A stretch of DNA of 64,000 nt, from NCBI GenBank assembly GCA_015501055.1, contig JADNYV010000001.1:620001-684000 (forward strand), in the 5' to 3' direction. This stretch comes from Mucidula mucida (Eukaryota; Basidiomycota; Agaricomycetes; Agaricales; Physalacriaceae). Made by a program: the position numbers and the translations under genes. The notes under the pieces were generated by a model. The model made no database searches. It saw only the letters and a list, made by a program, of their open reading frames with translations, and had not been told where the DNA came from. Positions 5,052 through 64,000 of the stretch are shown here, piece by piece; the stretch's first letter is position 1; each line of letters starts with the position of its first letter.

Positions 5052-5537
5052 GGCAAATTATGGCCCACTGGATGGCAGGTCTGTTGGGTATATGGGCGCG
5101 TGTCGTATTGCTTCAATGACAGATAACGAATGTCATGTCGAAGATGGCCGTACAAATGACAGTCGCATCCTGCTGATCGGTACTATTTGGTGACAAACCA
5201 AACAATGGCGACGATATCTGCAAAGTTGAATGCAATTTTACATGAATAGCCTGCAGAGCAATGTAGCACGACATACGTTTGACGATGGCCTCATTTTTAT
5301 GACGCGGAAACCCTAACCTCGGTCGTCTTGCCGCTTATTTGGTCCATATTTCGACTTGAATTTCGACCTCCATGCACATCCCCCCGTCTCCTCGATAGCA
5401 ATGATACACGGCCTAAAATCTTTCAAAAACACCATATTTAATCAGCAGCTATATTCACTGCAGCCCACATTGGCTTCACACTAGATCCGACAATCCTAAT
5501 TGCTTATAATCTACACCTGCAAAAGAGCCGGGAAATC
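5052..5537. promoter_or_regulatory. Bidirectional promoter region between DCD1 and PAB1
   Basis: These 486 bp separate the divergent start codons of DCD1 (minus) and PAB1 (plus). No convincing ORF lies inside. GGAAACCCTAACC at 5306-5318 is the exact reverse complement of the 13-mer upstream of TTI1. It resembles a telobox (AAACCCTAA). The regulatory role is inferred. Confidence 0.4.
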
Positions 5538-7874
5538 ATGACCATAGACGGCCCCAGAATTCTTCTCGTCGACTCCTACGACTCCTTCACGTACAAGTGC
5601 GTGCATCCATATAATCCACGAGACTCTGTTCTAACGTTTTCTGTCAGCCTAGCTTCTCTTCTTCGCAGATCTGTTCCTGGTTGTTCTATCCATATCATAA
5701 AGAACGATGACTTCAACATTCATCAGCTCCTCCCTTTCCTTCGACATTTCTCTGCAGTCGTGGTGGGTCCCGGTCCCGGTTCTCCAGAAATCGAGACGGA
5801 CATCGGTGTCGTCAGGGATTTATGGAAGTTGGCGGGCGATGATGTGTTGCCGATATTTGGCGTATGCCTAGGACTCCAGAGCTTCGTTTTGGAGTTCGGA
5901 GGTTGCATTCAACGCCTCTCTATTGTCAAGCATGGACAGATTTCTCGTATACAACACGACGGAAGCGACCTTTTCGAAGGCGTTGGACTTGTGGAAGCTG
6001 TTCGATACCACTCTCTTCACGTTACTTTGCCATCGGTGGCGGATTCCGACCTTCAACCGTTGGCTTGGGCGGATGATGAAGCTGACAACGGCCGCGTCCT
6101 CATGGCCGCTACACATAGAGATCTGCCCTTCTGGGCAGTCCAATATCACCCAGAGTCGGTTCGCACCAACGGTGGGGGTTTAGAAGTGCTGTCGAATTTC
6201 TGGCGACTGGCGAAACAGTGGTCGAGAAAACAAGGGAGAGTTCCTACGCCATGGACTGCAGACGCTCGCCAAGCTTTCGGGTTCCCTTGGCCTCATTATT
6301 CCACAACCTCGCCTGCCTCTGGCCTTCGTTTTACCCCTTCGGCTCTCCTTATCGTGCAGACTGAAGTACTAGTCCTTCCGTTGTTGACGGTGCCAGTAGT
6401 CTGCGAATTACTGGGGTCGTACAATGATGACAACCCTTTCGCTCTTCTCGACTCTGCAGCACATCCCGGCCGTTTTTCTATCATCGGTTGTCCAACGTTA
6501 ACATCCCCTCAGATCACATATTGGGTTGGTGATGAGAGCGTACATATCACTCGTGGCCAGCATACAATGAAGGAGCATATGGCGAGGAAGGATATTTGGT
6601 CTTGGCTTTCTGCGTACATGCTTGAACGCAAAGCTGTCGGCGGACATTCCGAGGTGCCGTTTTGGGCTGGATTTCTGGGGATTCTGAGTTACGAAGTTGG
6701 TTTACGCCAACTGGATGTGACTCCAAAGTCTAGTCAAGACGATCGCAGGAAACTTCCCCACCCAGATGTCAACCTCATCTTTGTGGAACGAAGTATTGTG
6801 ATGGACCATCTTACAGGCAAAGTCTATGTGCAATCCATCTCCCCCGACGATAATGAATGGCTTCGAGACATGGCCCAGACGCTATACCAGGCTTCTACGA
6901 GACCTACCGCCTCAAAATCTACGTCGTCAATCGCCGACTTTTGTTCGGAAGTGACGCTTCCGGACAAAGATAGTTATATCAGCGGAATCAAGACGGCAAT
7001 GGAACATTTGTTCTGCGGGGATTCGTACGAGCTGTGCCTCACAGCCATACACATATTCGGGCGTCACCTCAATCGTCATGGTCCAGATACAAAGCACTAC
7101 GCGAGCGCAACGCTGCTCCTCATTCAGCTTACTTCCGTCTCAAACCCACCACCTTCCTTTCCTCATCACCGGAACGTTTCCTCTCGTACTCCCGCTCCCC
7201 AGATTCATTATGCCAACTGCGACCGATAAAGGGCACCATTCGCAAAGGGCCAGGCATAGACCGAGCATACGCGGAAAAGGCTCTGGCTCAAAATCCGAAG
7301 GAGGTTGCGGAGAACCTGATGATTGTGGACCTCATTCGTCATGATCTCCATAGCGTCGTGGCGAAGATGTCCAGGTCACGCAGTTTTGTGGTGTCGAGGA
7401 GTACAAAACTGTTTGGCAACTCGTCAGTGTGATTGAAGGACGTCTCGGTAGTGGTTCCGGTGATTCTGACGGGCTGTTGGGGTGCAGGGTGTTGCAAGCA
7501 AGCCTGCCACCAGGTACACGGGCGTCCCATCTTTGTTCTTTTGATGTTGATATCTTTACAGGGAGCATGACTGGAGCACCGAAAAAACGCAGTGTTGAAA
7601 TCCTTCAAGACCTGGAGAGCAGTGATCGAAGTTTGTACTCGGGTGTGTTTGGGTATTGGTGTGTCAGTGGCTCGGGAGATTGGGCAGTAACCATTCGGAG
7701 CTGCTTCAAGTACGACGACCCACGACTGACGAGGAAGATTGGATTGTCGGTGCGGGAGGTGCGATCACTGCTCTATCGGACCCAGAGGCTGAGTGGGAGG
7801 AGATGGTTGTCAAATTGGGCAGTGTCCTTGGTATCTTTGAGCATTGTGAGCATGATGATGAAACGCATCCGTAG
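5538..7874 (+). CDS. PAB1: p-aminobenzoate (aminodeoxychorismate) synthase, fused PabA-PabB, with three apparent frameshifts
   Basis: The bifunctional enzyme makes 4-amino-4-deoxychorismate from chorismate and glutamine for folate synthesis. The N-terminal glutamine amidotransferase has GPGPGSPE, the nucleophile Cys in FGVCLGLQ and the His-Glu pair in QYHPES. The C-terminal chorismate-binding part has YELCLT, SSPERFL, KGTIRKGPG, DLIRHDLH, VEEYKTVWQ, GYWCVSG and VGAGGAITALSDP. An intron at 5597-5647 joins SFTYN to LASLL. The component I part sits in three successive frames. The shifts fall near 7045, 7360 and 7719, and each is repaired in principle by one extra base in a short C or G run. The terminal stop is at 7872-7874. 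This is either sequence error or a damaged gene: the conserved motifs on both sides of every break show little other decay. PAB1 is genetically linked to the A mating-type locus in Coprinopsis cinerea. Confidence 0.92.
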
Positions 7875-43755: not shown

Positions 43756-46245
43756 ATGATTGCAAGAGTTGCCCGGAATGTCTTGCCAAAGCCTGCTGCC
43801 CGCCCGTTTCGCTTTCGGGGCTGCCTCGTCGCCAAGCAGGAGTCTCGTCGTACCACCCGCAAATTCTCGACAGAAACTCGGCCGACGATTCCTGCATCAG
43901 CAGACGACCGGACACTCATAACACTCTTCGACCAGCCGTCGACCAGCTTCAGCGGCGGTCTCTTCTCCAGGACTGGATTATTCGGGCACGAGACTTTAAC
44001 GAATCCGCGGGCTCTAATCAGTCTAGCCAATGCGACCTACGTACGGGCACAGCTGCTCACAAATCGTATTCTCAAGGCGCCCGAGTCTCGAGACGAAATG
44101 TTCAAGGTCGTCAAGAACTTGGACCGCCTCAGTGATATGCTGTGTGGTGTTATAGACCTCACAGAGCTCGTACGGAACTCTCATCCTGATCGCGCCTGGG
44201 TTGACGCCGCAAATACAGCATACGAGACGTTATGCGAGTTCATGAATGTTCTGAATACTCATGTTGGGTTATACGAAGTGCGTCGTTGTGTTGTTGAGCT
44301 GCAGTGAGCAATGTTAATGCCTCTCCAGGTCTTGAAATCTGTCCTGTCCGACCCTGACATTGTGAAGTCACTTTCACCGGAGGCGTATAAGACTGCCCTC
44401 ATATTCTGGCACGACTTTGAACAGTCGGCTATTGCTCTTCCGCCGGCACAACGCGAGAAATTCGTGTCTCTAGCAACAGACATCATCGTCCTTGGCCGAC
44501 AATTTCTCAAGGATGCTGATGCTCTTCGGCCTCCAGCATCCATAAAACCTTCAGAACTTTCTGGTCTGACAGATCAGGGCATGGGCGTTCGGCTCAAGTA
44601 CCAAGCACGCTTCACGCAACGCGACTTGTTAGTTTACCCAGGCTCTTTGCAAGCGCAAATGATTATGCGTTCTGCACCAGCCGAAGAACCACGGAGAAAG
44701 ATGTACATAGCAGCGAATTCGAGCTCACCGGAGCAAATCGCTACGCTAGAGCAGCTCTTACGAAAACGCGCGGAGGTCGCCCATCTTGTCGGCCACAGCA
44801 GTTACGCTGAAATGACATTGGACAGTAAGATGGCCAAGTCTCCAGGCAAGTCTTAGTTTTCGCTCTATTTGACGCCATGGCTTATATTCAACCATAGAAA
44901 ATGTGTCGCATTTCCTCGACGCGCTTATGGACTATACACGTCCGTATGCTAAAGCAGCAATAGGTGCTCTCAGTCGACGCAAAGAGGCACATCTACGTAC
45001 TCCACCTTACCCCATTATCCAAGCTTGGGATCGTGATTTCTATTGTCCACCCGAACCCCCGGCCCCTCCGATTCCTCTCCCCCCTTTGACTGTCGGAACC
45101 GTCTTCATGGGTCTTTCGAGGCTTTTCCGCCATCTGTACGGCGTGACTTTTCGCCCGGCAGAAACTTCCCCGGGAGAAGTCTGGCACAAGGACGTCCAGA
45201 AGCTCGAGGTCGTAGATGAGACGCAGGGTATCATTGGCTGGGTTTATGCTGATCTATTCGCGAGACGTGGTAAAGCCAGCGGTGCTGCTCATTACACCGT
45301 CCGGTGTTCTCGGAGAACTGACGACGACGACGATGACTCAAATGCACCTGCTATCTTAGACGGTAATGAGTATAATGTGCGTGAGTCTGTCGACTTTGAA
45401 GCTCAGAAGCGACATCGGTTACCTGGGCAAGAAGGCGTATACCAACTACCTCTTGTCGTTTTATTAACGGAATTCACTCGACCAACATTGGCTGGCGGAG
45501 CTGCGGGGCTCGAATGGCATGAAGTAAAGACGCTCTTCCATGAGATGGGACATGCCATGCACTGTAAGCTACTACTTCTTACCCATTGTAGACGTATTGC
45601 TCATTGCCTATAGCAATGCTCGGGCGGACGGACTACCAGAATGTCTCTGGCACTCGTTGTGCGACAGACTTCGTAGAGCTCCCTTCCATCCTCATGGAAC
45701 ATTTCCTCTCCTCGCCCGATGTTCTTTCCCTCTTCGATGTGGACTCTACCATGACTCTCCACCAGGGTGTCAACAACACTGAGGACCCATGCCACTCCAT
45801 TGACACATACTCCCAAATCCTACTCTCCGCTGTCGACCAGATTTATCACTCGTCTGGCGCCCTCGACCCTAACTTTGATTCTACTAAAGAGTATGCCAAT
45901 CTGCATAATACTCGCGGATTAATACCGTACGTCGAAGGGACTTCTTACCAGACTCAATTCGGACACTTGTTTGGATACGGTGCCACGTATTATTCATATC
46001 TATTTGACCGGGCGATTGCCTCTAGAGTATGGAGTCATGTCTTTGCGAAGGACCCTCTTAGCCGCGCGCAGGGAGACAAGTTCAGAGGCGAGGTGCTGCG
46101 GTATGGCGGAGGGAAGGATCCTTGGAAGATGGTAGCCGCGATCCTATCGAATCCCCAGTTGGAGAAGGGTGATGCTGAGGCTATGCGGGAAGTAGGTCGG
46201 TGGAGGATTGAAGACGAGATGGGCTTCGCCGCTGGCATGCACTGA
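43756..46245 (+). CDS. OCT1: Mitochondrial intermediate peptidase (mip/OCT1)
   Basis: This is an M3-family metallopeptidase that removes an octapeptide from precursors already cut by the main processing peptidase in the matrix. The N-terminus ([22 protein letters not shown]) is a basic presequence. Thimet-type blocks run through the protein: [22 protein letters not shown] with the zinc HExxH motif, [33 protein letters not shown] and [15 protein letters not shown]. Four short introns are needed, one just after the HAMH of the zinc site. Length is about 780 residues. This gene is the classical conserved flank of the A mating-type (HD) locus in Agaricomycetes. Here the homeodomain pair begins 10.6 kb downstream. 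Confidence 0.95.
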
Positions 46246-49228: not shown

Positions 49229-51305
49229 GATTGCGTGCGGTGTTCGTGAAAAAAGGTCGTAAGGAGTTGGAAGCACAAAAGCGCGTCGTAACGGCGAGGG
49301 TGATTATGAAAGGGCTCGGGCCGGCGAGCCGAACTCAGCTCTCGGCACGATGCGCGACGCGTCCATTAAACGCTTAGAATACCAACGCTCTTGCAGCAAA
49401 GTTATAGCGTTATATTCATTGGTATACGTGAGCCGAATCCACCTTCTGAAGTCAACGAGATCGAATCTAAAAACTCTACAGTCAAGTACCAGACGTCATA
49501 TTTCTCTTGTATCTACACGAAGTACTGTAAAAACTGATTTTGAGCAGCCATTGTCGTCTTCAGTTGAACAATTGTAAGGCTCACGGAGAACATGCTGTTA
49601 CAGGAGCGCTTTCTCTCGGATTCCGAATTTTTCTTCTGATCATCCTTGTAGAACTGTTGTAAAGAGTCTCGAAGAAATGCATATGTGTACTACGCCTGTA
49701 CCTCCCGCCAACAGAAATCTGCATTGAAACCTGCCATTGGCGGGACTGTCAAGTACGTACTTGATGTCGCCGACATATATGTTTTTGTGGGACGATTTGT
49801 CAGTAATAGCATGTAGCCAACGTCTCCCTATAGCGCCTCGTCTTCTTCCCTTGGGTAAAGATCGTCGTCAGAGCCCAGTATCGTTGATCCTGTCTAAAGC
49901 TCGGAGATCCGACTTTGGCAAATCATCAAAGAGATGCACGTGAGAGCGTTCTAAACTTCTAATGACCAATGCCCACCACGGTATGGTATGCCCTACGGGA
50001 AGCACGCTGATGCCTTTATGATACTGACTCTCACCTGAGTGTTACTCTTTTAAGGCCTTCGCTGAATTGCTGAGGACTCAGAGCCATACACACGATATGC
50101 AATTAGTAGAAGTTGACTCAACGCATACTCAGAATGGGTCAGGCCGAAGGAGTACCTGAGACACGCACACAGAGCTACTTGTCAATTCAGTCTGTTCCAC
50201 CACATGTCTCAGGCCACAAGAATAACCTAGAACCGCCTTTTCGCGTTAAGCGGCATCCATGTTGACGACTCGTACACAATGCGATGGTACGACACATGTC
50301 ATTCCTGCAAGGATTCATCAATCATCAACGCCATATCTGTCTGTAACGATAATTGAAGACTGGAAGTCAACCCGAGTGACGAATCCTACCGCCTCAATAG
50401 CAGGACGCATAAATAGAAAAGCGAGTCAATCTATTTCAAACAGCATACCTTATGCAACTTTCTTTTGGCCGAGCCGTTGGCTGAACTATGAGTGATAGGC
50501 AAAGGTGAACAGTGCCTTTTGATCAGAAGAGACGATCTGAGCTCACGTCGGAAGGTAAAGCAAAGACACCGCAATTATGTGCTAAGCACAGCTAAAAATT
50601 GACTTTCCACAGAAGGAGTCGAGCGAGCGTCCAAAATGAAGACGACCATAGCCGAAGAGGTACAGAGCAATATACGGGCAATTTCAGTTTATGATTGGTG
50701 CTGCCAGTGTACGAAAGAACACGCAAGAGAGTCACTGTAGCTCACCAGGAACTTGAAGAGCAAGGAACCCGTTCTGAACGCAAGTCCGATGATGAAACAG
50801 AAGCTTGTAATCGAGACCACCGAACCAGTCTCTGCCAGTCTTGCTCAGCCCCGAGTCCTTGCGATTCGGCATTATTACGGCGTCCACATGTAATACCGCT
50901 ACTTTGAAGAACGAATGAAAAGCGTGGAAGAGAGTGTCAGAATCATCTGACCACAGAGCGTCCGGAGTGTCATAAATCGCCAGTAGAGCTGAGAGTTGCC
51001 TAAGCTGCGGGATCACCACGAGGAAGTAGGAGAAAAGGAGGCAAGAAATCACATCTCGTACTGAGGTAGAGGTCATAACGCGTTGAAAACTTGAACGCAG
51101 GAAGAAAAGCTGCTTGATGATCGATGATCGAGATCAAGATCGAGACTGTTTCGGCAACCCGCATGAGGCGCACTCAGACGGCAGAATCAGCCCTGGATCA
51201 GTTTGTCTCTCAAGTGTCCGTACATAATGCCACATTTATCCTCTAGTATCACTAAAGCCCCGGTCTTCCCTCCCTCCCTATTCCCATCTGGTGCAGCCGT
51301 CGCTT
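49229..51305. other. Gene-poor 2 kb gap between DNM1 and the fucosyltransferase-like gene
   Basis: Apart from one weak minus-strand ORF (50732-51076), no coding sequence is supported here. ORFs are short and lack family motifs or consistent splice patterns. I looked for homeodomain helix-3 remnants (WFxNxR) and for transposon features and found none. At over 2 kb, this is the largest apparently empty stretch in an otherwise dense window. Confidence 0.45.
50732..51076 (-). CDS. Possible small uncharacterised protein
   Basis: The ORF is 114 codons from an ATG and starts MTSTSVRDVISCLLFSYFLVVIPQLRQL, with one hydrophobic N-terminal helix that could be a signal anchor. A GT-AG intron (after SFFK, about 45 nt) could change the later part. 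The first 58 residues look protein-like, while the remainder is less convincing. I know no homologue. This may be a lineage-specific gene, a remnant or chance. Confidence 0.25.
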   Translation of the reverse strand: MTSTSVRDVISCLLFSYFLVVIPQLRQLSALLAIYDTPDALWSDDSDTLFHAFHSFFKVAVLHVDAVIMPNRKDSGLSKTGRDWFGGLDYKLLFHHRTCVQNGFLALQVPGELQ

Positions 51306-53119
51306 ATGAACTTCAAGTACTCCCCGTTACACTCCAGGGCATCTTCCTCAGCCTCCGCCATGGAAGACGGATTAGATGTCTATCCGCGGAAACCGACTAA
51401 CTTTAGACGACCTCGTCTCGTCAATGTCGCGATCCTTTTAGGGCTTGCCTCGCTGTTATCCTTGGGTGTATGGACGATGCATCCATTCGGAGAGATGTCG
51501 CCGACGAGTGAAGCAGTAGCAGATGATCTTCTCGAGAGCCCGCCTTCCGTCGTGGAGGAGAACACCACATCCTGGAATACCCGAGTACTGCGTGGAGGAC
51601 CAGCGGCACATTTTAGAGGTGCGCGATCCTCAGAGTCTTGTCAGATCCAGTTGTACTCACCCTCACTAGATGCATTACGCCCTGACGTCAAGTATATAAC
51701 GTCGTGGCCTGCTGCAGGCTGGAGTAAGTGCCCAGAAATTTTCCTTTTCTATATGCTAATTCATTTCCTTCTCTTCAGCGAACGATGTAATGACAATGGT
51801 TCGTCCTTCCTTGTCTCTGTTATTTTCTGTTGGATTTACAAGAGATTTCTTGTAGGTAAACATGATTTACCTCGGTGTTATCACGGAAAGAGTACCTATT
51901 GTACCGCCATTTACTCCCTCACACGTCCTTCAAGACGGCGTCGCGTCAGAGATTCCTTTCGGCGACGTGTTTGACGTTCCGCGGATGCAAAAGTTAATGA
52001 ACACTCCGATTCTTGAATGGCGCGATGTCAAAAGTCAAGCCACCGGCGAGAGTGATGAGCTTGGGTGCTGGAATGTCTGGGAAGCCACTCAATATCACGA
52101 ACCATATCCCCGACGCAGTAGTGTTCCCGGCCTCTTGAAACTTGGTATGCATTTCTTTGCAATGTTTTTGGCTTGACTCAATATGCGTTAGATATTTCCT
52201 ATACCTTGGCTCCAAGTTGGATCAAACTCTATCCCAATTACGAACACGACTCGCATGCAACATTTTGGTCATTGGCGCGGCTTGCATACCCTGAAACCCG
52301 GGAAGCGAGTCTTGTTACACCTCTCCCCTCTCCGAATAATGTCTCCCTTCCTCCCGACGAACAACTTCTATGCTACGATTATCTCTACTATGTCTGTGCG
52401 CAGCAGGTAAGCTCAGAATAGCGCGTAGTCTCGATTCAACTAATCGCACTTTCTAGCCGTACGAATACGATTGGGAATACAGCCCGGCCTGGCGATTTGT
52501 TGCCCAACACATGCATTTTACTCCAGCGCTTGAGCATCTCGCGAACATATACATCAATCGAGCAATCGGTATTCCAGAAGATGAGCCCACTCCTCCCGTA
52601 AGTTGTTGAGTTCATTCTTTTCAGCGGCCAACTAAATATATTTCAGTATATCGGTATTCATGTCCGTCATTCCGATTTTGGTTATGCTTGCGGAGATTTG
52701 GCCAAGGAGATTGCTTCGCACCTCTATCGGCAATAGCGCGGCGGGTCCAAGAAGTCAAGGATGAAGTGATGGAGAAGAGCGGGCGCATCGTCGATCACGT
52801 CGTCGTAACTAGCGACGAGAAAGATCCTGCATGGTGGCAAGACGTCGCTAATTTGGGCTGGGTCGCGCCTGACCACAGTCAAACCATTCAGTTGTTTGGG
52901 CCATGGTACGTTATCATTAGCCCAATGTCGGTGGCCTGTCACTTACGTTCAAACCAGGTATCCCGTTCTTATTGACGCTGTCATCCAATCTGGGGTGTCG
53001 GATTTGTGGGGACGGCTCGGTCGACTATGTCCATTATCGCCGCAAGACGTACTGGCGCATGGCAGAATGGAGCTACGAGATATGTGGAATGGGGTAGGCC
53101 AGGGGCCGATGATCACTAG
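51306..53119 (+). CDS. Type II membrane glycosyltransferase, O-fucosyltransferase-like, with two apparent frameshifts
   Basis: The protein has a short cytosolic N-terminus, one membrane anchor (VNVAILLGLASLLSLGVW, about residues 43-60) and a lumenal region. The lumenal part resembles the agaricomycete O-fucosyltransferase-like family. Blocks are KYITSWPAAGWTNDV, MIYLGVITERVPIVPPF, PYEYDWEYSPAWRFVAQHM, YIGIHVRHSDF (the GDP-sugar-binding HxR motif) and VVVTSDEKDP. The C-terminal motif GFVGTARSTMS and the ending WGRPGADDH then TAG at 53117-53119 are in a third frame. Two single missing bases explain this: one near 52707-52710 (before DCFAPLS) and one in the G run at 52992-52995. The gene is either misread or recently damaged. 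The donor sugar and acceptor are unknown. Confidence 0.78.
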
Positions 53120-54402
53120 GACTTTTCGGGCTATCTACCATCCTCCTACATTGGACAGGACTGCATCATTTCACAGTAATAACACAACTTGTATTGATAC
53201 GCTACATCGACTACTGAACTATCAGAATTTGGTTTCCAATCACTTACAGACCAGTACTTTGACGAGAGTTTTGTAACACATTGTGGCGTACGGTTCGTCA
53301 TGCTCACACTCCTCGAAATGCACGGTGTCATGGCGCATGATTGACGGACATTTGAGTATGGTGCTACACGTTTGCCACTAGAAGGGCAGAAGCTGAGCAC
53401 TGATGTTGCTCCTTCGGGCCTTGGAAGGCCCAGTGCTAGTACCGGCAGTTCCCGGATCTCTCGAACTTGAAGGTGTCGAGAAAGCTAGTCGTCAATTATA
53501 TCCATTCAGAGGATGTCCAACTATCCGACTGGCTTTGACTTTTGTACATCGGCGTCACTCTTCAGTTCGGCATCGTCAGATATGCAGATTAGTTTAGTGT
53601 TAAGGAACATGGCATCTAACACTTCCATGGACAACAGTACAACGAGCCTCACCTTCACAATTCTCAAAAAACGGGTCCTTGCCCGGTGAGAAGTTTAGTT
53701 GAAGGAACTATGGTCTTCCAACACTGAATCCACCGATACGTCCAGCTGAACACGACTCGGATGTCTCTCGCCTCGCAACATCTGAATACTTACTGAGGAT
53801 GGCCGCGGGACGCTGCCAGTAAAGCGCGCCTCTGAAGGTGAAACTGGGAAGAGGCAGAGAAGGTGCGAGTGGAAGTACTAGCAAACCGCCGCGACGAAGA
53901 TGAGCCACAGATAGATACGGTCCACTGTCCATCCTGTAGCACGTCCATACGCCAAGGAAAGTGTAGGGATGAGTGGAGATTCCCGAAGTCCTCGTAGCTT
54001 CGCGAATTTGCCAATCTCGAAGGGGAAGCGTCGCGAAAAAGAAGCGAGCTTAGGGGAGAACACACGTGTTCGCGAGGAGCGACTGTGGTGGGAGACAGGA
54101 GCCTAGATGGCGGGAGTTGGCGACGGAATGGTATTCTGAGTGTAGTATTATTCCAGCAAGTATTAGGTGGTTCACAGAGGGCATTGAGGCAAAACCAAGG
54201 ATCGAAAGTAACAAGAACGAATGAACGGCAAACGCCGACGCGAGCAAGTCGCCGATCTAGCTCTTGGTCAACGGCGGAGTCTGAAACTTCCTTTCTCCTC
54301 GCCGTCATCATTGCTCCTTGACGGTGGAGACATTCCTTCTCGCCTTGCGCTCAGCGGCGAGCCACTTTCCTTTGCAATCACTTCGTTCTTGCAGGGACAA
54401 GG
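53120..54402. other. Gene-poor gap between the two glycosyltransferase genes
   Basis: These 1.28 kb show no supported gene. The longest ORF (53790-54311, minus) is Arg/Ser/Pro-rich without a motif and overlaps others in every frame. I see no repeat. Confidence 0.4.
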
Positions 54403-55962
54403 ATGCTTTACTTGACATCAGATGATTTCCCCATATGTGCGTACCCTGTTCTACCCTGAGAGAATTTTGACCCCAACAACCACCCACACAGTCGTGCCGT
54501 TCGGGCTGATTGGGTATGTTGCTCGCCTATCGTCATTCTGCTCTGCTTCACGTTGAATGCCAGGTTCTATCGTTACTTCTGGTATATCATCCGCATATCC
54601 GCATCATTTGCATATCGCCCAGTTCCTCTGCCCACCAATCCTACGTACACCCCCTCTGAAGACGTCACTATCATCGTCCCAACCATCGATGCCGGACCAG
54701 AATTCATCGCGGCGGCACGCTCCTGGCTCGCGGGAGCTCCGCCTAAAGAGATCATTATTGTCACTGAAGAACGCATGCTTGAACCCCTACGCGCTCTAGC
54801 GGAAGAGGTAGACAAAGAAAGAATCAAGGTCATGACGGTCCCGTTTGCGAACAAGCGGCTGCAGATGGCGGCAGGCATCAAAGCGGCACAGACGGACATT
54901 CTTGTTTTCGCAGATGACGATGCGCTTTGGCCGCCGACGCTCCTGCCATATGTTCTTGCCTGTTTTGAGGATCAACGGATTGGTGGCGTCGGAACCTCCC
55001 AACGTGTTCAATCAGTTGGAGACAAGATGACTGTTTGGGAGGTTCTTGCCGCGTTCCGCCTTACCATCCGTAACATCGAAATTTCTGCGTCAACGCACAT
55101 CGACGGCGGAATTCCCTGCTTGTCGGGCCGTACTGCCGCGTACAGGACGATTATCTTGAAGGATCCCGAGTTTCTGTGGGGATTCACGCACGATTATTGG
55201 TTGGGTAAATATCAGCTCAATAGCGGCGACGATAAGTTTTTGACGCGGTGGATGGTTTCTCGCGGATGGGCAACGTACGTGCAATGCTGCAAGGAGGCGG
55301 AGCTTCTTAGCACGATGAAGCCGAACTGGCGATTCTTGAAGCAAGTTCTGAGGTGGACACGGAACACATGGCGTAGCGATCTCCGCAGTCTTTTCACGGA
55401 GCGGTTTATATGGACGGCACATCCCTATGTGGCTTATACGATGGTGGACAAGCTTTTCAATCCCTTTACACTCCTTGTTGGACCTTGTCTTGTGGCATAT
55501 GTAGTATACAAGAGTACGATTCCGGTGGAAGATGGTGGCTACCATTTGCCGTGGTGGAACGTGATGTACGTACGCGTTCTTTCGCTTGGCCTCCGTTGAC
55601 ATTGCTGTAGTTTGAGTTATCTCGTCTGGTTGACTGCTACACGTACGGCGAAGCTCCTCCCGCATCTTTGGACGCGTCCTCAGGATGTGATCTATGTCCC
55701 TGCGTTTATCCTGTTTGGATATTACTTTGCGATCATGAAATTGTACGCGTTGTGCACGTTACATGAAGTGCGTATTCTGTTTTCTTCCTTATCTTTCTAA
55801 TCGTCCACTTTCATGTAGACCGGGTGGGGCACGCGTGCCGGAATCGGCGATATCGGCGCTGCAACTGCGGCGATGGATAAAGAGAAGGAGGAAAAGAGCC
55901 CGTTCCGCGATGAGAATAGGGAAGTGGGCAGTGTGGGCTATGAGGCTGGTAGAGATAGGTAA
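54403..55962 (+). CDS. CPS1: Family 2 glycosyltransferase, Cps1/hyaluronan-synthase-like
   Basis: This is a membrane processive glycosyltransferase like Cryptococcus Cps1 and type 2 capsular polysaccharide synthases. ATG 54403 gives MLYLTSDDFPI, joined through two introns to VPFGLIG and FYRYFWYIIRI, a membrane helix. The GT2 catalytic domain has VTIIVPTIDAG, EIIIVTEE, ILVFADDDALWPP with the metal-binding Asp cluster, GIPCLSGRTAAYR, NSGDDKFLTRW and the QVLRW motif (QxxRW). C-terminal membrane segments follow (NPFTLLVGPCLVAYVVY, DVIYVPAFILFGYYFAIMKLYAL). The charged tail ends GRDR with TAA at 55960-55962. It is about 475 residues. The polymer made is not determined by sequence. Confidence 0.87.
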
Positions 55963-56848: not shown

Positions 56849-58859
56849 CTAGAACATGTTCCCCATCTGTGGCAGCAGACCCCAGTTCATACTGGGCATC
56901 CCATAGCCCATGTTCGTGTTCATCCCAAGGCCCATAGACATGTTCATATCCATCCCGTACCCCATGCCCATATCCATGGGCATGCCAAGGTTAACGTTCA
57001 TAGGCATAGGATATCCCAAGTTCGGATCGAAACCCATACCGATCACACCGTACGCGTCTCGTCCAGCGACGCTGAAGCCCTCAACAGCCAGCTTGACGTT
57101 GGGTTGTGGGACTTGGGGTTGCGGCTCGGGACCACCGAAAAGACTATCCATGTCGTCATCATCTTCGGATGAAGCAGACGAATTGGATGTAAGGGACGGC
57201 GTGCGGGAGGAGGTGGACGAGATGGAAGAAGATGACGCGTGCGAACGGAGCGACGATCTCGACGGTGCAGGGGCCTTGACGTGTGATTGAGTTTGAGTAG
57301 GATACGGCTCGTACCGCGGCGCAGCCGTCGGTGTCCGCTTCTCCCCAAGCCTCTTCTTCTTTTCCTTCTCCTTCTGCCTCCGTTTCTCCTTCTTGGCCTG
57401 TTGCTCCCTCTCCCTCTCCTCCTCCGCCTTCCTCCGAGCTCCTTCTCCTCTCTTATAATCCAGTGCCGTCTGCCACGCGCCACGCTGGCTTCTCACATAC
57501 CACCGCACGTCCATTGTCAACGCAAGTGTAGCGGCACCAGAGCGTTCACGCTCGTCATCATCCCCCGCATACTCTCCATACACCCTCTGACCGAGGTCCC
57601 CGAAATGGACGCGGCCAGGATCACTGAACATTTCGGTGATGAGGCGCACGCTGGCTTTCACGTCTTTTCTCGTCGGCACAGGTTGCGGGATATGCGCAGG
57701 TGGCGCTGGTGTAGGGTGCACGGTCGTTCGCTGGGAATACGGTGCTTTCAAGGCGGAAAAGTCGAACGTAATTTCGCCCGCTTTCCGTTGAGCCGCCCAC
57801 TCCTCCATGGTCTGCGATGGAAGAGGCGCTTTCAAGGCGAGACAGTCGACTGGGGAGCCCCGCTCTACGATGTCGGCGTTCTCCCTTTCGATGACAGTTC
57901 GTCCAACGACCTTGCCTCGTTCCCAAAGTCCCGACAGGCCAAAGCTTCCCCAACCAGTCGCCCATCTCCACTTCTTCTCTTCATCCTCCTTGCGTTTCTT
58001 TTCTAGCCCACTCGCAGTTTCGTCGGGGGATAGTCCGACACCGTAGTAGCCCTTGAGCGGGACATACGATGTGAATTCGTTGATTTGCTTGAGAAGGTCA
58101 GCGGGTACACCCTTGGCGGCTTTATCCTTGTAATGTGCCTTTTGTAAATTGACACCGGTTTGCTTTCGCACGACGGCACGGCGGTTCTGGAACTGCACAA
58201 CATCAGTATCTATGAAATGATCAGGGGAACGAAAACCGGTAATGCTTACCCAAACATCTATCTGCCGCTCAGACATAAGACCCTTTTCGGCCATTATCCG
58301 TTTGTCGGAAGCGGGAGGGAAAGGATTCCAGAGGAAATACGTAGTCAAAATGGGAATGAATGCCTGCAGAGGAATGGGTCAGCGTAGGAAAAAAAATCAA
58401 GGACCCAGGAAAACATACATTGTTGAATGGCTTGGACGATGTGCTTGGGATGGTTGATGCCGCTTGTATCGAGCGAGCAATTTCCTCTTTGGTCTTGTAA
58501 TGTTGTTCCATGACACCAGGTAAGGCCTGCTGAACGAATCTCTTTCGTAACATATCCGCAAACTTTTCCGGTATGTTGAGACGTAGCAAGTCTGTCCCAA
58601 ACGATTTACGCGCGTTATCGAAGGCTCGTTGATACCCTTCTCGTAGTTCCTGTATAGAACGAGCGAGAACTGTACGCAGCTCTGGAAAGACTGAAGTATC
58701 GTCAAGTTCAGCTTGGACATCGTGTGGTAACTCGAGGATGAGAACATATGGCGGTGGAGGTGCTGATTGCGAGGAGTGAGAAGGCCGAACGGAGGTAAGG
58801 GCTTGCTTGAATAACGAAGAGATTTGGCTGATGCGCTGGTAGCGCTGGGTATCCGACAT
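56849..58859 (-). CDS. HD2-type homeodomain mating-type protein
   Basis: This is a typical-homeodomain partner of the basidiomycete A (HD) mating-type system. HD2 binds HD1 from a different allele, and the heterodimer regulates sexual development. ATG 58859 starts MSDTQRYQRISQISSLFKQAL, a helical N-terminus expected to carry allele specificity. The homeodomain lies at about residues 140-198: FIPILTTYFLWNPFP, ERQIDVW, then FQNRRAVVRKQTG. W48, F49, N51 and R53 are intact, and an intron falls exactly between W and F. A Lys/Glu-rich helix and Ser-rich and acidic (EDDDDMDSLFG) stretches follow. The last 50 residues are Met/Gly/Asn-rich. Total is about 632 residues in three exons; TAG is at 56849-56851. 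It is divergent from HD1. Confidence 0.92.
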
Positions 58860-59052
58860 CCTGTACGGGAGGGAGAAGAGTGCGTTTCGGGAGATCACTA
58901 CCTTGACAGGATATTTAGGACTCCGAAGAACAATGGATTAAGGGTGTTTGGCTATATTTGACAACAGATACTACGGCACGTCTCGGCACAGATTGTATAT
59001 CACGCTTGTGAAGCGCCTTGAGCCTTCCAACTCCCACGACTGTGCACTCACT
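58860..59052. promoter_or_regulatory. Divergent promoter between HD2 and HD1
   Basis: Only 193 bp separate the two start codons, the arrangement normal for HD pairs. I can name no binding site with confidence. Regulation by shared elements is inferred from the geometry. Confidence 0.5.
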
Positions 59053-61716
59053 ATGGCAGCGATTGAGACACGGCTCATTTCAGCTTTCGAATCCTTCCTT
59101 CAAATCGCACACGAGCCCTGCAACAGTCCCTCTGTCCACGATTTCGCCTCACAATGGCATTCGCTCTATACAGATACAATGGGAAAGCTGGACGAATCTA
59201 GCGATTTACATTACAGGATCGCCGACGCCATGGATGTGATGACTCGAGGCCTTTTGCATTTGTCTGTTGCGGAAGACGAGATGGCGGACCTTCTTGTCGA
59301 GAAGCAAGGAACAGTTAAAGCGGGACTGATACCACGACGTGCTACGCCACCGTCAGCCAAAAGGCAGTCTTCGCCTACACTTTCGTCCGCCTCTCCGTCC
59401 CGCGAGGCCTCTCCCGCAGACTTTTTGGACTCGTCAACGCCTAGGCCTTCTCTGTCGCCTGTCGCTTCTCCCCGCGTACCCTCTTTTGACCTCGCGAATA
59501 CCACAGAGCAGTTCGTTCATAGGCTGGTGCCAATAACGCCACCCAGACCACGGCGGGATAACTCTAATGAGGCCATCTCCCCGTCATCTCCTTCTATAGC
59601 GTTGACACTGAAGACCTTTTCAAACAAGGAGGAAGTCTCATCAGGATTGTTGTCGCGCACGGCCACTGAGGACGAAAACTCTCAGAGTAGTGCTTCTCCA
59701 CCCGATCGTACTGCAGGTGCGTTTTGCCTCGTTTGGGCCTCGATTGCACCGTTGACAGCTTCAAACTCAGGCACTCAGAGCGTTGCTGTTGAAGACCATG
59801 GTATGTCTCTGCCTCTTGTGCATGTGGGTCTCGACTGACATACTTCAAGGCGTAGAGCTCCGAACAACGACGCCTGACGCACTTCAAGAATTAGGAGGTG
59901 CTTCCTCCCAAGCAGCAGGTCTGTTTGTTTTGACATTTCTAGAGGAGCCATATATTGATCCTTCCCGTTGTCATTGAAGCAGAACTAACGTCCGTCTCGA
60001 AACCTGCCCCCACAACGCCACGGTCCCCATCACCAATTGTGGACTTTGATTCACATGCCGAGTTTTCTTCCCTTGCGACCCAAGAATCCCGCAAAGGGTC
60101 CTGTTTACCACCTGCATACATCAGACCACTCCTCACGCACCTTGTGGCAAAGCCCTATAACTTGTACCCATCCAAAACTCTCATATCGGAAATTGCTCTC
60201 TCGAGCGATACGTCCGAAAAAGACATGAACGCCTACCTGAGCCAGTTGCGCTCAAGACTGGGATGGAACGCAATCCGCAAAAAGTACTTTCCTCCAACGC
60301 AATGGAGCATCAACGAGATGCTTGCGTGGCTGGATGGGTATTGGCAGTACACGCACTCCGAGCTTCCTTCGCTCAAGGATTATGATTTCTATATGGGTGC
60401 GAACGGCATCAGCGGCACAATGTGCGGGCTGGACGTTCGATTGGCGGTCTTGCATGACGACTTGAGAGGCATTTACGACAGGATGATAGGGAGGGAGGGT
60501 GAGGGTAGTGATGTTGGCAAGGCGATCAAGGAGGGCCTTAAATGGTCGGGCAAGCACGAGTGGGAAAAGAAGAGGCAAGAGCTTGAGAAACAAGGCGAGG
60601 CGTTGAGGAAAGTGCAGAGGGAGGAAGAGAGAAGTCTCAAGAGGAAGCTTGTGGACGACGAGGACTATGACGACGAGGGAGCGGCTAGACAAGTACCGCG
60701 CGCCCGCGTGGTCTCTGCACCTCAACCTCAAAGCAAGAAACGTGGTCGTTCAGAGTCTCCGGAATCTGAAGACGATGGGGACTCGACGCCGCCGCCACCC
60801 GCTAAGCGACATTGTTCACTCCCAACGATGTCGTTGTCGACACCGCCAGATCTCGCCAATTGGTTCAAAGTTCAGACGCCGATGTCGACGTGGGACGCAC
60901 CGGTGACGTTGAAGGCCTTTAGCTACGGCACAATGCCGATGCCGTCGCTCGTCGACGATGATAGCGACTCAGAGAGGGGAAGTAGTGTTGGACGTGAGTA
61001 TCCTTTTGTTTTTGGCTCCTTTTCGTTTGTTTGGTTTCGTGGCGCAGTCATGGTGTTCTGTGCGTTGGTGTCTCGTCAGTTGTGGCCGATTAGAACGCAG
61101 GCCAGCGTCGATGGTAAGGAGGGGAGGAAGGAAACAACGAGTTTCCATTTCAAATGCTTTTATATCCCCTGGTCCTTTATCTGTCCATTCTCGGCGATTT
61201 CTATTGTTTCTGCATATCCAATTCTTGGATCCATATTGGGTCAGATGGTCTTGTTCGGCGTTGGGCCATTGCGTTTCATTTTTCAATTGTTCCTCTCCGT
61301 TCCATTTCGTTAACGACGATGCTGACTCGACATCTTATCTAGCATCTACACCTGATTCTTCAGAACATGTCGACCTTCCTTCGTTCGATTTCTCAAGCTT
61401 GGTGCAACCTATGGATTATGGAGGGATGCCGAAGCCATTCGAGCTTAACGTTCCTACACTCCCAGATGTTGCATTCCCCGAGCTTCTCAACGCCCAGAAT
61501 CTCAACATTGACCTTTTCGCTGGTCTGTCTGCCGCGCCGGCATCCACAGGCAAGGACCTCCCGTCACTATCCAGCTCTGACCAGTTCATTTCCATCCCGA
61601 CATCTGATGAAGCTCCGTTTGATTTCGGTGACCCCCAATCCTGGAGTTTCAACTATGAGGGCTTGGATCTAGGGAGTATGGGCTTTGATCTGAACTTTGG
61701 GTTGGATGGCGTGTGA
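59053..61716 (+). CDS. HD1-type homeodomain mating-type protein with degenerate recognition helix
   Basis: This is the HD1 partner of the A mating-type pair. ATG 59053 starts MAAIETRLISAFESFLQIAH, a helical N-terminus for allele discrimination. After a Ser/Pro-rich region the homeodomain lies at about residues 295-355: PYNLYPSK, SEKDMNAYLSQLRSRLGWN and AIRKKYF. The HD1-specific R(x)GWNxxRKK(Y/H)F tail is clear, but helix 3 has Tyr, Leu and Gln where W48, F49 and N51 are expected. Downstream are a charged coiled region (WEKKRQELEKQGEAL), basic clusters KKRGR and PAKRH that fit a nuclear signal, and a final acidic/aromatic exon (FDFGDPQSWSFNYEG). Introns are near 59719, 59802 and 59921, and a 349-nt intron lies at 60994-61342. 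Length is about 715 residues. Confidence 0.88.
60994..61342 (+). other. Long intron of HD1
   Basis: The donor CGTGAGT is at 60993-60999 and the acceptor CTAG at 61339-61342. Splicing joins the SDSERGSSVG exon to PSTPDSSEHVDLP in frame. At 349 nt it is six to seven times longer than nearly every other intron here. The upstream frame stays open into it until 61313. Confidence 0.65.
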
Positions 61717-62408: not shown

Positions 62409-63700
62409 CTAGCGCTTCCCACCTTGAACAGGCGGCGTATACCCCGGCGGGGGCCCATCCGACGCCCACTGCAGCATATTCATCTGCTGGCGCAACGCCG
62501 CTATCTGCGCCTTGAGCTCGTCCATCTCCTCGTCCCGTCCCCCCGGCGTCTGCGCCATCTCGTTCTGTATCGCGCGCATCTGCGCCTGCAAGCGCGTGCG
62601 CCGCGGGTCTATGGGGGATGCGGGGGGTGCGGCGCCGGGTGGGAGTGAGGACGACGATGCTGCAGCGGACATGACGATGGCGCCGCTTGGTAAGGAGGAT
62701 ACGACGTCTTGGGGTATATACGACGAGGACCTCATAGGGGTGTATTCAGAGGAAGAGGAGGATGGAGTAGTGAAAGCGGGATAATTGTATTCGGTGAGCG
62801 GAAGGAGCGACTGCGCGTTGTCGTTATAGGGCGAGGACCTGGACATGGGTGGCTCGTGGTTAGGGTTATGGTACCGGCGGCGCCGCTTGAGGAAGAACAA
62901 GATGGCTAGTCCGACTCCGAGCGCGGCGGCGAGTCCGCCGACTACGCCTCCGACGATGGCGCCAGTCGAGGAAGATGAGCCATGGCCATGAGAGGAAGAT
63001 GAGGTGGCGGAAGAAGAGGTTGAGGTAGAACTTGCTGTACCAGAGGCCGCCGCGTCTTCATCATATCTACAGGACCGTAAATGAGATGCATGATTTCGCT
63101 TCTGGAGGCGCGCGAACACACGTACGTATACACCGCATAGTCAAAGCTGACAAACACATTATAGTCAACGCCCGATGTGCTGACCAGCACGCTGTGCGCG
63201 CGCTGCTCGAGCCCCGCCACCGAGAATGCAAGCGCGTTGTACTCCAGCGCCGTTGTGATATCAGAGGGCGTGTGCGTGAACAGCCCGGCGCGCTCATCGT
63301 CCAGCGTGAAATTGCACTCCGTCCTCGTCGTAATGCCGCTTCCCTCGTTGTTGGCGAGGATAAAGTACACATACAACGCAACGCCTGTTTTGTTTGTTGG
63401 TATACATAAGAAAGTAGCAAGTAGGAGTAACGCACCCTCAAAAGAAAAAGAAATATTGGTCGACCCAAGGGTCGGATTATAAGTGGCCGCCATCCAAGTG
63501 CCGTCGAACGCTGAGGACGGGGAGGGCTGTATCGCGCACCGCGCGCAGTGCGTGCCGTCCCAGGCGCTCATGGGCTGATACACGGGCACCACGCCCGTTT
63601 CCGAGTCGCCGTTAGTGTCATCGATGGTGCGATTGACGCGCGCGCCGCGGGCGCAGTTTGCTAGCAAGCAAAGCAAGACGAGAAAGCAGGCGCCCATCAT
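62409..63700 (-). CDS. Single-pass membrane protein with extracellular domain and cytosolic coiled coil
   Basis: No named family is recognised with confidence. ATG 63700 gives MMGACFLVLLCLLANCARG, a signal peptide with cleavage likely after the Ala/Gly stretch. The extracellular part (WDGTHCARCAIQPSPSSAFDGTWMAATY, then FSFEGVALYVYFILAN across an intron) resembles the lumenal domain common in agaricomycete one-TM proteins. A Ser/Thr-rich stalk (TSSTSTSSSATSSSSHG) leads to one membrane helix (IVGGVVGGLAAALGVGLAILFFL) and a stop-transfer cluster KRRRR. The cytosolic part ends in a coiled coil (LQAQMRAIQNEMAQ, ELKAQIAALRQQMNML). Two introns are present; TAG is at 62409-62411. A surface sensor or wall-anchor role is possible. 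I cannot show that it is the beta-flanking gene. Confidence 0.72.
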
Positions 63701-64000
63701 CAAAGTTGGGTCGTCAAAAACATGGAAAGTGTCAGTGATATGTATGGAATCAGGCACTAGGCTTTAGCGCGCCAGGGCCGTTTGATTGACAGGTTTTCCC
63801 CGGCGGGAGTAGAGTATTCTTCGCGCTGGCACTAGTGTGTACATTTATGATTATGGTCCTGGCCCCCCCCAGAGAAATTTCAAGGCGGTGGTAGAGGTGC
63901 GAGATTATGCCACCCGTCACATGACCGGAAAGACGCAACGACGCTCAAGGACATCTCAACGACCGTGGCTCAATTGGAAACTACGACGGACTCAAAGCTT
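63701..64000. other. 5' flank of the membrane-protein gene, window end
   Basis: These 300 bp lie upstream of the minus-strand membrane-protein gene and hold no supported gene. A short C homopolymer is at about 63863-63870. Confidence 0.4.

What the first reader, a model, noticed from the sequence alone, without database searches (positions are those of the whole stretch)
56849..61716. Complete A mating-type (HD) locus with a divergent HD2/HD1 pair
Seen: two divergent genes 193 bp apart. One has an intact WFQNRR helix split by an intron between W and F (HD2 type). The other has the HD1-type tail GWNxxRKKYF. Known: Agaricomycete MAT-A loci consist of such pairs, with mip and (in Coprinopsis) PAB1 as linked genes, and both are in this window. 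Inference: this pair controls A-type compatibility. Only one pair is visible here, so a second sublocus, if any, lies outside.
Basis: partly seen in the sequence, partly recalled or inferred. Interest (0 to 1): 0.9.

Follow-up and report, generated by a model that had tools for sequence, protein, structure and literature searches.

The report
Mushroom A mating-type gene pair
This is part of the mate-recognition gene locus of the porcelain mushroom, and the same genome assembly also holds a sharply different version of it, as expected for genes that let a fungus tell self from non-self before mating.

Summary
Two divergent genes, start codons 193 bp apart, encode an HD2 protein (632 aa, WFQNRR split W|F by an intron) and an HD1 protein (715 aa). 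The genome is Mucidula mucida (Physalacriaceae). The MIP-side flank is 97% identical. The promoter shows no similarity, and the N-termini are 12-67% identical in 40-residue blocks, with synonymous divergence 1.0 to saturated against 0.00-0.07 in neighbours. The rest of each protein is 82-100% identical. The locus is not complete in the window: a second HD1/HD2 pair starts 2.9 kb past its end with the same pattern. Genome searches found no further pair. All 4 HD1 models lack WFxNxR (Asn51 is Gln or Ser), and the window's HD1 has no Pfam match, though a weak model resembles homeodomains. Degenerate HD1s are known in Polyporales. One haplotype carries a truncated third HD2 N-terminus inside its second pair, possibly a fossil of an allele swap. 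Verdict: an ordinary, well-supported MAT-A locus with two instructive details. Function was not tested.

The parts
56849..58859 (-). HD2.1a gene (HD2 mating-type homeodomain protein, 632 aa, 3 exons)
   Evidence: Pfam PF00046 E 3.2e-8; profile of four HD2 models matches two Flammulina velutipes HD2 proteins, E 1.6e-101 and 1.5e-96
58193..58249 (-). HD2 intron 2, splitting WFQNRR between W and F
   Evidence: GT..AG; removal restores WFQNRRAVVRK
58364..58418 (-). HD2 intron 1, inside the homeodomain
   Evidence: PMC3140503 passages report both HD2 introns interrupting the homeodomain at the same places in Flammulina and Coprinopsis
58500..58859 (-). HD2 variable N-terminal (specificity/dimerisation) region, residues 1-120
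   Evidence: 0.58 identical between haplotypes (75 of 130 aligned columns of residues 1-140); dS saturated over residues 1-120
58860..59052 (.). 193-bp shared divergent promoter
   Evidence: 0.42 identity to the other haplotype's 176 bp against 0.43 mean of 50 shuffles
59053..61716 (+). HD1.1a gene (HD1 mating-type protein, 715 aa, 5 exons)
59053..60116 (+). HD1 variable N-terminal region, residues 1 to about 299 (exons 1-3 and part of 4)
   Evidence: 20-60% allele identity by 40-residue block, dS 2.1
60105..60275 (+). degenerate TALE-like homeodomain of HD1; helix III YLSQLR in place of WFxNxR
   Evidence: assignment as a homeodomain is inferred
60261..60290 (+).
   Evidence: read directly
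60105..61716 (+). conserved HD1 C-terminal part (last 420 residues), with basic KKRGR and AKRH stretches (probable NLS, recalled type, not predicted here)
   Evidence: 0.95 allele identity, 400 of 420
44873..46245 (+). MIP (mitochondrial intermediate peptidase), 3' part, two overlapping open frames
   Evidence: Pfam PF01432 in both; 98% identical allele on C480
46494..47297 (-). C-terminal exon of a dynamin-like gene between MIP and HD2
   Evidence: Pfam GED
54460..55599 (+). family 2 glycosyltransferase, direct neighbour of HD2
   Evidence: Pfam PF13641; dS 0.00 to the other haplotype
5442..7229 (+). PAB1 (para-aminobenzoate synthase), first part
   Evidence: Pfam GATase + Anth_synt_I_N
62409..63763 (-). 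gene of unknown function lying between the two HD pairs
   Evidence: open frames; frame 62409-63140 has no Pfam match and is 95% identical between haplotypes

Best explanation
The pair is one of two tightly linked subloci of the MAT-A (HD) locus of the mushroom Mucidula mucida. Each haplotype carries pair 1 (HD2.1/HD1.1, in the window) and pair 2 (HD1.2/HD2.2, 5.2 kb further on). The hypervariable N-termini decide partner choice: HD1 and HD2 of the same pair and haplotype should ignore each other, whereas HD1 of one nucleus should dimerise with HD2 of a compatible nucleus. The heterodimer would then enter the nucleus and switch on the dikaryon programme. HD2 supplies the DNA-binding homeodomain. 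HD1, whose recognition helix has lost WFxNxR, would supply dimerisation, nuclear import and activation rather than base contacts. Shown here: anatomy, two pairs, allele divergence concentrated in N-termini and promoter, a more conserved remainder, no further pair found in the genome, loss of the motif. Inferred: non-self dimerisation, role in mating, division of labour.
For: Divergent pair with a 193-bp promoter. MIP and PAB1 linked. HD2 profile hits two named Flammulina velutipes HD2 proteins (E 1.6e-101, 1.5e-96), which differ from each other in the same pattern (N-terminus 0.37, homeodomain 0.93, C-terminus 0.96). Second haplotype on C480 and C318: MIP-side flank 97.4%; pair 1 core unaligned (C318 1359-2931 against window 58692-60105); pair 2 core unaligned; 95.0% beyond. 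N-terminal dS 2.1 (HD1.1), 1.0 (HD1.2), saturated (HD2.1, HD2.2), against MIP 0.05-0.07, dynamin-like exon 0.04, GT2 0.00 and the gene between the pairs 0.07. HD1/HD2 relatives only on C1 and C318. None of 27 STE3 exon matches lies on C1, fitting a separate B locus. Crosses in Flammulina indicated that its HD-b pair likely controls clamp formation (PMC5100862, abstract and passages).
Against: No cross, expression or interaction data. Only two haplotypes compared, from one assembly whose dikaryotic origin is inferred from colinear duplicate contigs. HD1.1a has no Pfam homeodomain match and no PDB sequence match. Two HD1 searches found no HD1 of any other species, so HD1 identity rests on position, pairing with HD2, HD1.2a's sub-threshold Homeobox_KN match (E 0.0038, 17.5 bits against a cut-off of 24) and a low-confidence model. 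Divergence is not limited to the N-termini: synonymous divergence of the rest of HD2.1 is 0.56 and of HD2.2 0.22, above the flanks.
Confidence: 0.92

Rival explanations
1. The two genes are developmental or housekeeping homeodomain genes that sit near MIP but do not determine mating type.
For: No functional data. A largely conserved HD2 gene does occur at an HD sublocus, FvHd2-1 at HD-a of Flammulina (PMC5100862 passages).
Against: Allele divergence is concentrated in the N-termini and shared promoter, with dS of 1 or more against 0.00-0.07 in the neighbours. It recurs at both pairs and matches the Flammulina pattern.
Confidence: 0.03
2. C318 is a paralogous second locus or contaminant, not the other haplotype, so the divergence is between paralogs.
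For: Haplotype status is inferred. No read depth was available, and C480 and C318 are separate contigs with a gap of about 1.3 kb in C1 coordinates.
Against: C480 and C318 together are colinear with C1 over about 60 kb (blocks of 81-97% outside the two unaligned cores) with both pairs in the same order. The MIP query has two matches, C1 and C480. C-terminal parts are 0.93-0.96 identical to the C1 allele but 0.50-0.58 to the paralogous pair.
Confidence: 0.03
3. Only pair 2, or only pair 1, is active in mate recognition; the other is a polymorphic passenger.
For: The function of the Flammulina HD-a sublocus remained undecided in PMC5100862 (abstract). Pair 2 of haplotype a has a disturbed promoter with an HD2 relic.
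Against: Both pairs have intact reading frames in haplotype a and, as far as the contig reaches, in b; both show N-terminal dS of 1 or more. Subloci are described as functionally redundant (PMC3140503 passages). A later paper's title, seen only in a reference list (PeerJ 2019 7:e6292), calls the second Flammulina sublocus active.
Confidence: 0.2

Closest known systems
Flammulina velutipes HD-b sublocus (Physalacriaceae; PMC5100862, PMC3140503; abstracts and passages seen)
   Same: Divergent HD1/HD2 pair (199 bp apart in one strain); polymorphism in N-termini and the intergenic stretch; HD2 introns inside the homeodomain; HD2 homologous at E 1.6e-101.
   Different: Flammulina subloci are about 70 kb apart with a lone HD2 201 bp from MIP. 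Here two full pairs lie within 15.5 kb, and MIP is 10.6 kb from HD2 with a dynamin-like gene, a probable O-fucosyltransferase (not tested) and GT2 between.
Oudemansiella raphanipes mating A locus (PMC9961838, passages seen)
   Same: Close relative; two clusters of HD genes with Mip and Bfg at the two ends; one divergent HD1/HD2 pair described.
   Different: The passages give gene order only; no allele comparison at sequence level was seen. The Bfg gene was not identified here.
Pycnoporus cinnabarinus HD1 a1-1 (PMC4101180, passages seen)
   Same: HD1 with a degenerate helix III recognition motif beside an intact HD2.
   Different: Polyporales; also a helix II deletion. Here three helices are predicted (weakly) and the motif is lost in both pairs and both haplotypes of an Agaricales species.
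Trichaptum xHD2 (PMC8970355, passages seen)
   Same: Extra truncated HD2 copy within MATA in some strains.
   Different: There upstream of the alpha pair; here inside the pair-2 promoter, between HD1.2a and HD2.2a.
Coprinopsis cinerea A locus (recalled; PMC3140503 passages on gene order)
   Same: Multiple redundant HD1/HD2 pairs, MIP and PAB1 linked.
   Different: In most known basidiomycetes MIP is directly flanked by an HD1 gene; here the pair nearest MIP has HD2 on the MIP side.

Membership tests
Agaricomycete MAT-A (HD) locus | At least one divergently transcribed HD1/HD2 gene pair | tested here: met
   Two pairs per haplotype
Agaricomycete MAT-A (HD) locus | Linkage to MIP | tested here: met
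   MIP ends 10.6 kb from HD2
Agaricomycete MAT-A (HD) locus | Linkage to the beta-flanking gene | not tested
   No reference sequence at hand; two frames past pair 2 that were scanned have no Pfam match
Agaricomycete MAT-A (HD) locus | Allele hypervariability centred on N-termini and promoter | tested here: met
   two haplotypes only
Agaricomycete MAT-A (HD) locus | Heterozygosity required for mating / clamp formation | not testable with these tools
   Needs crosses
HD2 mating-type proteins | Classical homeodomain with WFxNxR | tested here: met
   WFQNRR in 4 of 4 HD2 models; PF00046 above cut-off in the 2 of 4 scanned
HD2 mating-type proteins | Sequence homology to a known HD2 | tested here: met
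   Flammulina HD2, E 1.6e-101 and 1.5e-96
HD1 mating-type proteins | TALE-type homeodomain | tested here: inconclusive
HD1 mating-type proteins | WFxNxR in helix III | tested here: not met
   YLSQLR (HD1.1a, b), YFRSLR (HD1.2a), YLRSLR (HD1.2b): Asn51 lost in 4 of 4. Some exchanges there are reported as tolerated in HD1 (PMC4101180), so it is not strictly defining
HD1 mating-type proteins | Paired divergently with HD2, with variable N-terminus | tested here: met
Two-locus (tetrapolar) system with a separate STE3 locus | STE3 genes unlinked to the HD locus | tested here: inconclusive
   27 STE3 exon matches, none on C1; contigs are not mapped to chromosomes

The most novel reading that the evidence does not exclude
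Haplotype a preserves a fossil of a partner swap inside an HD pair. HD1.2a is followed, in the HD2 position, by a truncated HD2 N-terminus (69202-69529 in window-continued coordinates, frame-shifted, no homeodomain) of a third HD2.2-type lineage. Then come about 0.9 kb of single-copy DNA, a 30-bp element conserved in front of HD2.2 in both haplotypes, and the intact HD2.2a. On this reading HD2.2a arrived with its promoter from another haplotype and replaced HD1.2a's original partner. A new HD1/HD2 combination was thus fixed although intra-pair recombination should risk self-activation. In addition, HD1 N-termini are about as different between alleles (identity 0.37-0.46) as between subloci (0.31-0.43), so HD1 specificities may be as old as the duplication of the pairs or may have been exchanged between them.
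Probability: 0.35. Interest if true: 0.6.

Novelty: new member of a known kind. Interest (0 to 1): 0.36.

Why it matters
Two searches of one open-licence library for this species (12 papers listed, passages of 2 opened) showed no account of its MAT-A locus; other papers may hold one. Two of the eight genes came back from the protein database as named records, both 'hypothetical protein'. The locus shows in one assembly a textbook footprint of balancing selection. It gives an Agaricales case in which both HD1 proteins have lost the DNA-recognition residue, which makes the proposed division of labour (HD2 binds DNA, HD1 does not) testable. The HD2 relic offers a concrete fossil for studying how new mating specificities arise. 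For most readers it is an ordinary mating-type locus.

Tried and rejected
No sequence match of the HD1 region in the PDB (0). The first structure model of the HD1 region was poor (pLDDT 52.8); a two-sequence alignment gave 60.1, still weak, so the fold matches are suggestive only. Genome-wide Pfam scans did not list the window's HD genes.

A 12.8-kb DNA query did not even return itself and was discarded, except for one paralog noted in passing; the shorter MIP query worked. Repeat origin of the DNA between the HD2 relic and HD2.2a: no second copy was found in the genome. A second copy of the promoter element next to HD1.2a has 5 mismatches in 19, and 1.4 such hits are expected by chance in 93 kb, so it is not counted as evidence. 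The beta-flanking gene was not identified. A population survey and read depth could not be done.
Full report
WHAT WAS CLAIMED AND WHAT IS THERE. Gene models with GT..AG introns give HD2 on the minus strand (632 aa, three exons) and HD1 on the plus strand (715 aa, five exons), with the start codons exactly 193 bp apart. WFQNRR in HD2 is intact and split between W and F by an intron. GWNAIRKKYF follows the third helix of HD1. Pfam finds a homeodomain in spliced HD2 (E 3.2e-8) and nothing in HD1 at E<=1. Six-frame searches of the genome with PF05920 and PF00046 listed 4 and 40 matches, none at this pair. MIP and PAB1 are in the window.

SPECIES. The first HD1 search's only hit is a Mucidula mucida protein on a contig of 2,154,531 bases, the exact length of C1 on which the window lies. 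A second named protein of that species lies on a 36,915-base contig, the length of C318. P0001 equals my HD1.2a model apart from 14 extra residues at the start and a read-through into intron 2. P0003 equals HD2.1b apart from a skipped stretch near its end. M. mucida is in Physalacriaceae, Agaricales. Both are named 'hypothetical protein' there.

SECOND PAIR. Reading past the window shows HD1.2a (minus, 69079-66929 in window-continued coordinates) and HD2.2a (plus, 70520-72273), divergent. Between the pairs lie a gene whose scanned frame has no Pfam match and another unmatched reading frame. Genome searches with HD2.2a and HD1.2a report 11 and 9 exon matches, all on C1 or C318; a DNA search with pair 1 likewise (6 matches). 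So there are two pairs per haplotype and no others at this sensitivity.

The assembly contains parts of a second haplotype. C480 (25.5 kb) matches C1 30403-56017 at 97.4%, and C318 (36.9 kb) matches from 57363 onward. The MIP query is 98% identical; the last four full kilobases before HD2 are 98.8-99.9%. Identity collapses at the pair: 81% over window 57363-58691, no DNA match between 58692 and 60105, 92.7% then 88.4% over the spacer and HD1.2, none again between 68540 and 70413, and 95.0% from there to 93000. The promoters of pair 1 (193 and 176 bp) are no more alike than shuffled sequence (0.42 against a mean of 0.43). In blocks of 40 residues, HD1.1 alleles are 20-60% identical over residues 1-320 and 85-100% after. 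HD1.2 alleles are 12-67% over 1-240 and 90-100% after. HD2 alleles are 40-67% over residues 1-120 and 82-100% after, HD2.1b being cut off by its contig end.

SYNONYMOUS DIVERGENCE. By a simple Nei-Gojobori count, dS in the N-termini is 2.1 (HD1.1), 1.0 (HD1.2) and saturated (HD2.1, HD2.2). For the rest it is 0.11, 0.14, 0.56 (first 300 codons only) and 0.22. For MIP it is 0.05-0.07, for the dynamin-like exon 0.04, for GT2 0.00 and for the gene between the pairs 0.07. This is the signature of an old balanced polymorphism centred on the specificity regions. Two things do not fit a simple picture: HD2.1 is also divergent beyond its N-terminus (0.56), and the bins at 34 kb (0.85), 38 kb (0.91) and 80-81 kb (0.90-0.91) are less alike as well.

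COMPARISON WITH A TESTED SYSTEM. A profile of the four HD2 models retrieves two Flammulina velutipes 'Putative homeodomain 2' proteins (E 1.6e-101 and 1.5e-96). Those two differ in the N-terminus (0.37) and agree in the homeodomain and C-terminus (0.93, 0.96), the same pattern. In Flammulina, crosses indicated that the HD-b pair likely controls the HD pathway, read as clamp formation (PMC5100862, abstract and passages).

AN HD2 RELIC. Between HD1.2a and HD2.2a on C1 the promoter is 1440 bp instead of 215 bp. It contains an open frame of 96 codons, most of it like HD2.2 N-termini, then a remnant in another frame, and no homeodomain. An independent six-frame match there is 52% identical to HD2.2a residues 6-93 (E 3.3e-9). 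With the two pieces set side by side by hand, which favours likeness, it is 0.57 identical to HD2.2a, 0.51 to HD2.2b and 0.29-0.32 to HD2.1. It therefore looks like a third HD2.2-type lineage. C318 has no match there. A 30-bp element (29 of 30 identical) stands before HD2.2 in both haplotypes. A simple reading is that HD2.2a, with its promoter, was placed beside an older HD2 partner that then decayed; a tandem duplication with later loss is not excluded. Some Trichaptum strains carry truncated extra HD2 genes (PMC8970355, passages).

HD1 SPECIFICITIES. N-terminal identities are 0.46 (HD1.1 alleles), 0.37 (HD1.2 alleles) and 0.31-0.43 between subloci, whereas C-termini are 0.94-0.95 within and 0.50-0.51 between subloci. 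For HD2 the alleles remain closer (0.58, 0.70) than the subloci (0.34-0.39). HD1 N-terminal lineages may therefore predate or cross the sublocus split. With four sequences near saturation this is a lead, not a result.

MECHANISM. Shown: pairs, promoter, allele pattern, motif state, no further pair found. From established knowledge of the family: non-self HD1/HD2 dimerisation, nuclear import through HD1, DNA binding mainly through HD2. Inferred: that this holds in Mucidula and that HD1 here makes no base-specific contact. STE3 receptors are on other contigs (27 exon matches, 0 on C1), consistent with a two-locus system but not proving it.

VERDICT. A genuine MAT-A HD locus, correctly recognised; half of it was in view. 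A new member of a known kind, with moderate interest from the HD1 motif loss shared by both pairs and from the HD2 relic.

Noticed in passing
L003 (G000:C451) 313-1800; also contigs C209, C122, C612, C73, C116, C177, C383: Genes with two to about six tandem homeodomain-like units of about 60 aa, in C451 apparently one per exon and ending in W[YF]xxR without a conserved Asn51 (read by eye). Clustered PF00046 matches on these eight contigs suggest a family.
   Followed up: partly
G000:C1:689202-689529 (window-continued 69202-69529): Truncated HD2 N-terminal relic between HD1.2a and HD2.2a, with no match in the other haplotype.
   Followed up: yes
P0004, on a 4,114-base contig; not found in G000: A 331-aa protein 98% identical to HD2.1b over 283 residues but with a few differences; perhaps another record or strain of the species.
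   Followed up: partly
window 46494-55960: A dynamin-like gene (Pfam GED), a probable protein O-fucosyltransferase (named by eye, not tested by a family search) and a GT2 gene separate MIP from the HD pair; window 51609-53117 has a 69% identical copy at C1:569227-570735.
   Followed up: partly
G000:C14 (about 7.4, 45 and 113 kb), C902, C804, C559, C857, C59, C117, C349: STE3 pheromone receptor matches, some perhaps allele pairs (C14/C902, C804/C559); candidate B locus.
   Followed up: no
G000:C1:41564-42616 and G000:C103:32969-34021: Homeodomain matches with identical spacing on two contigs, perhaps a further haplotype pair near the start of C1.
   Followed up: no
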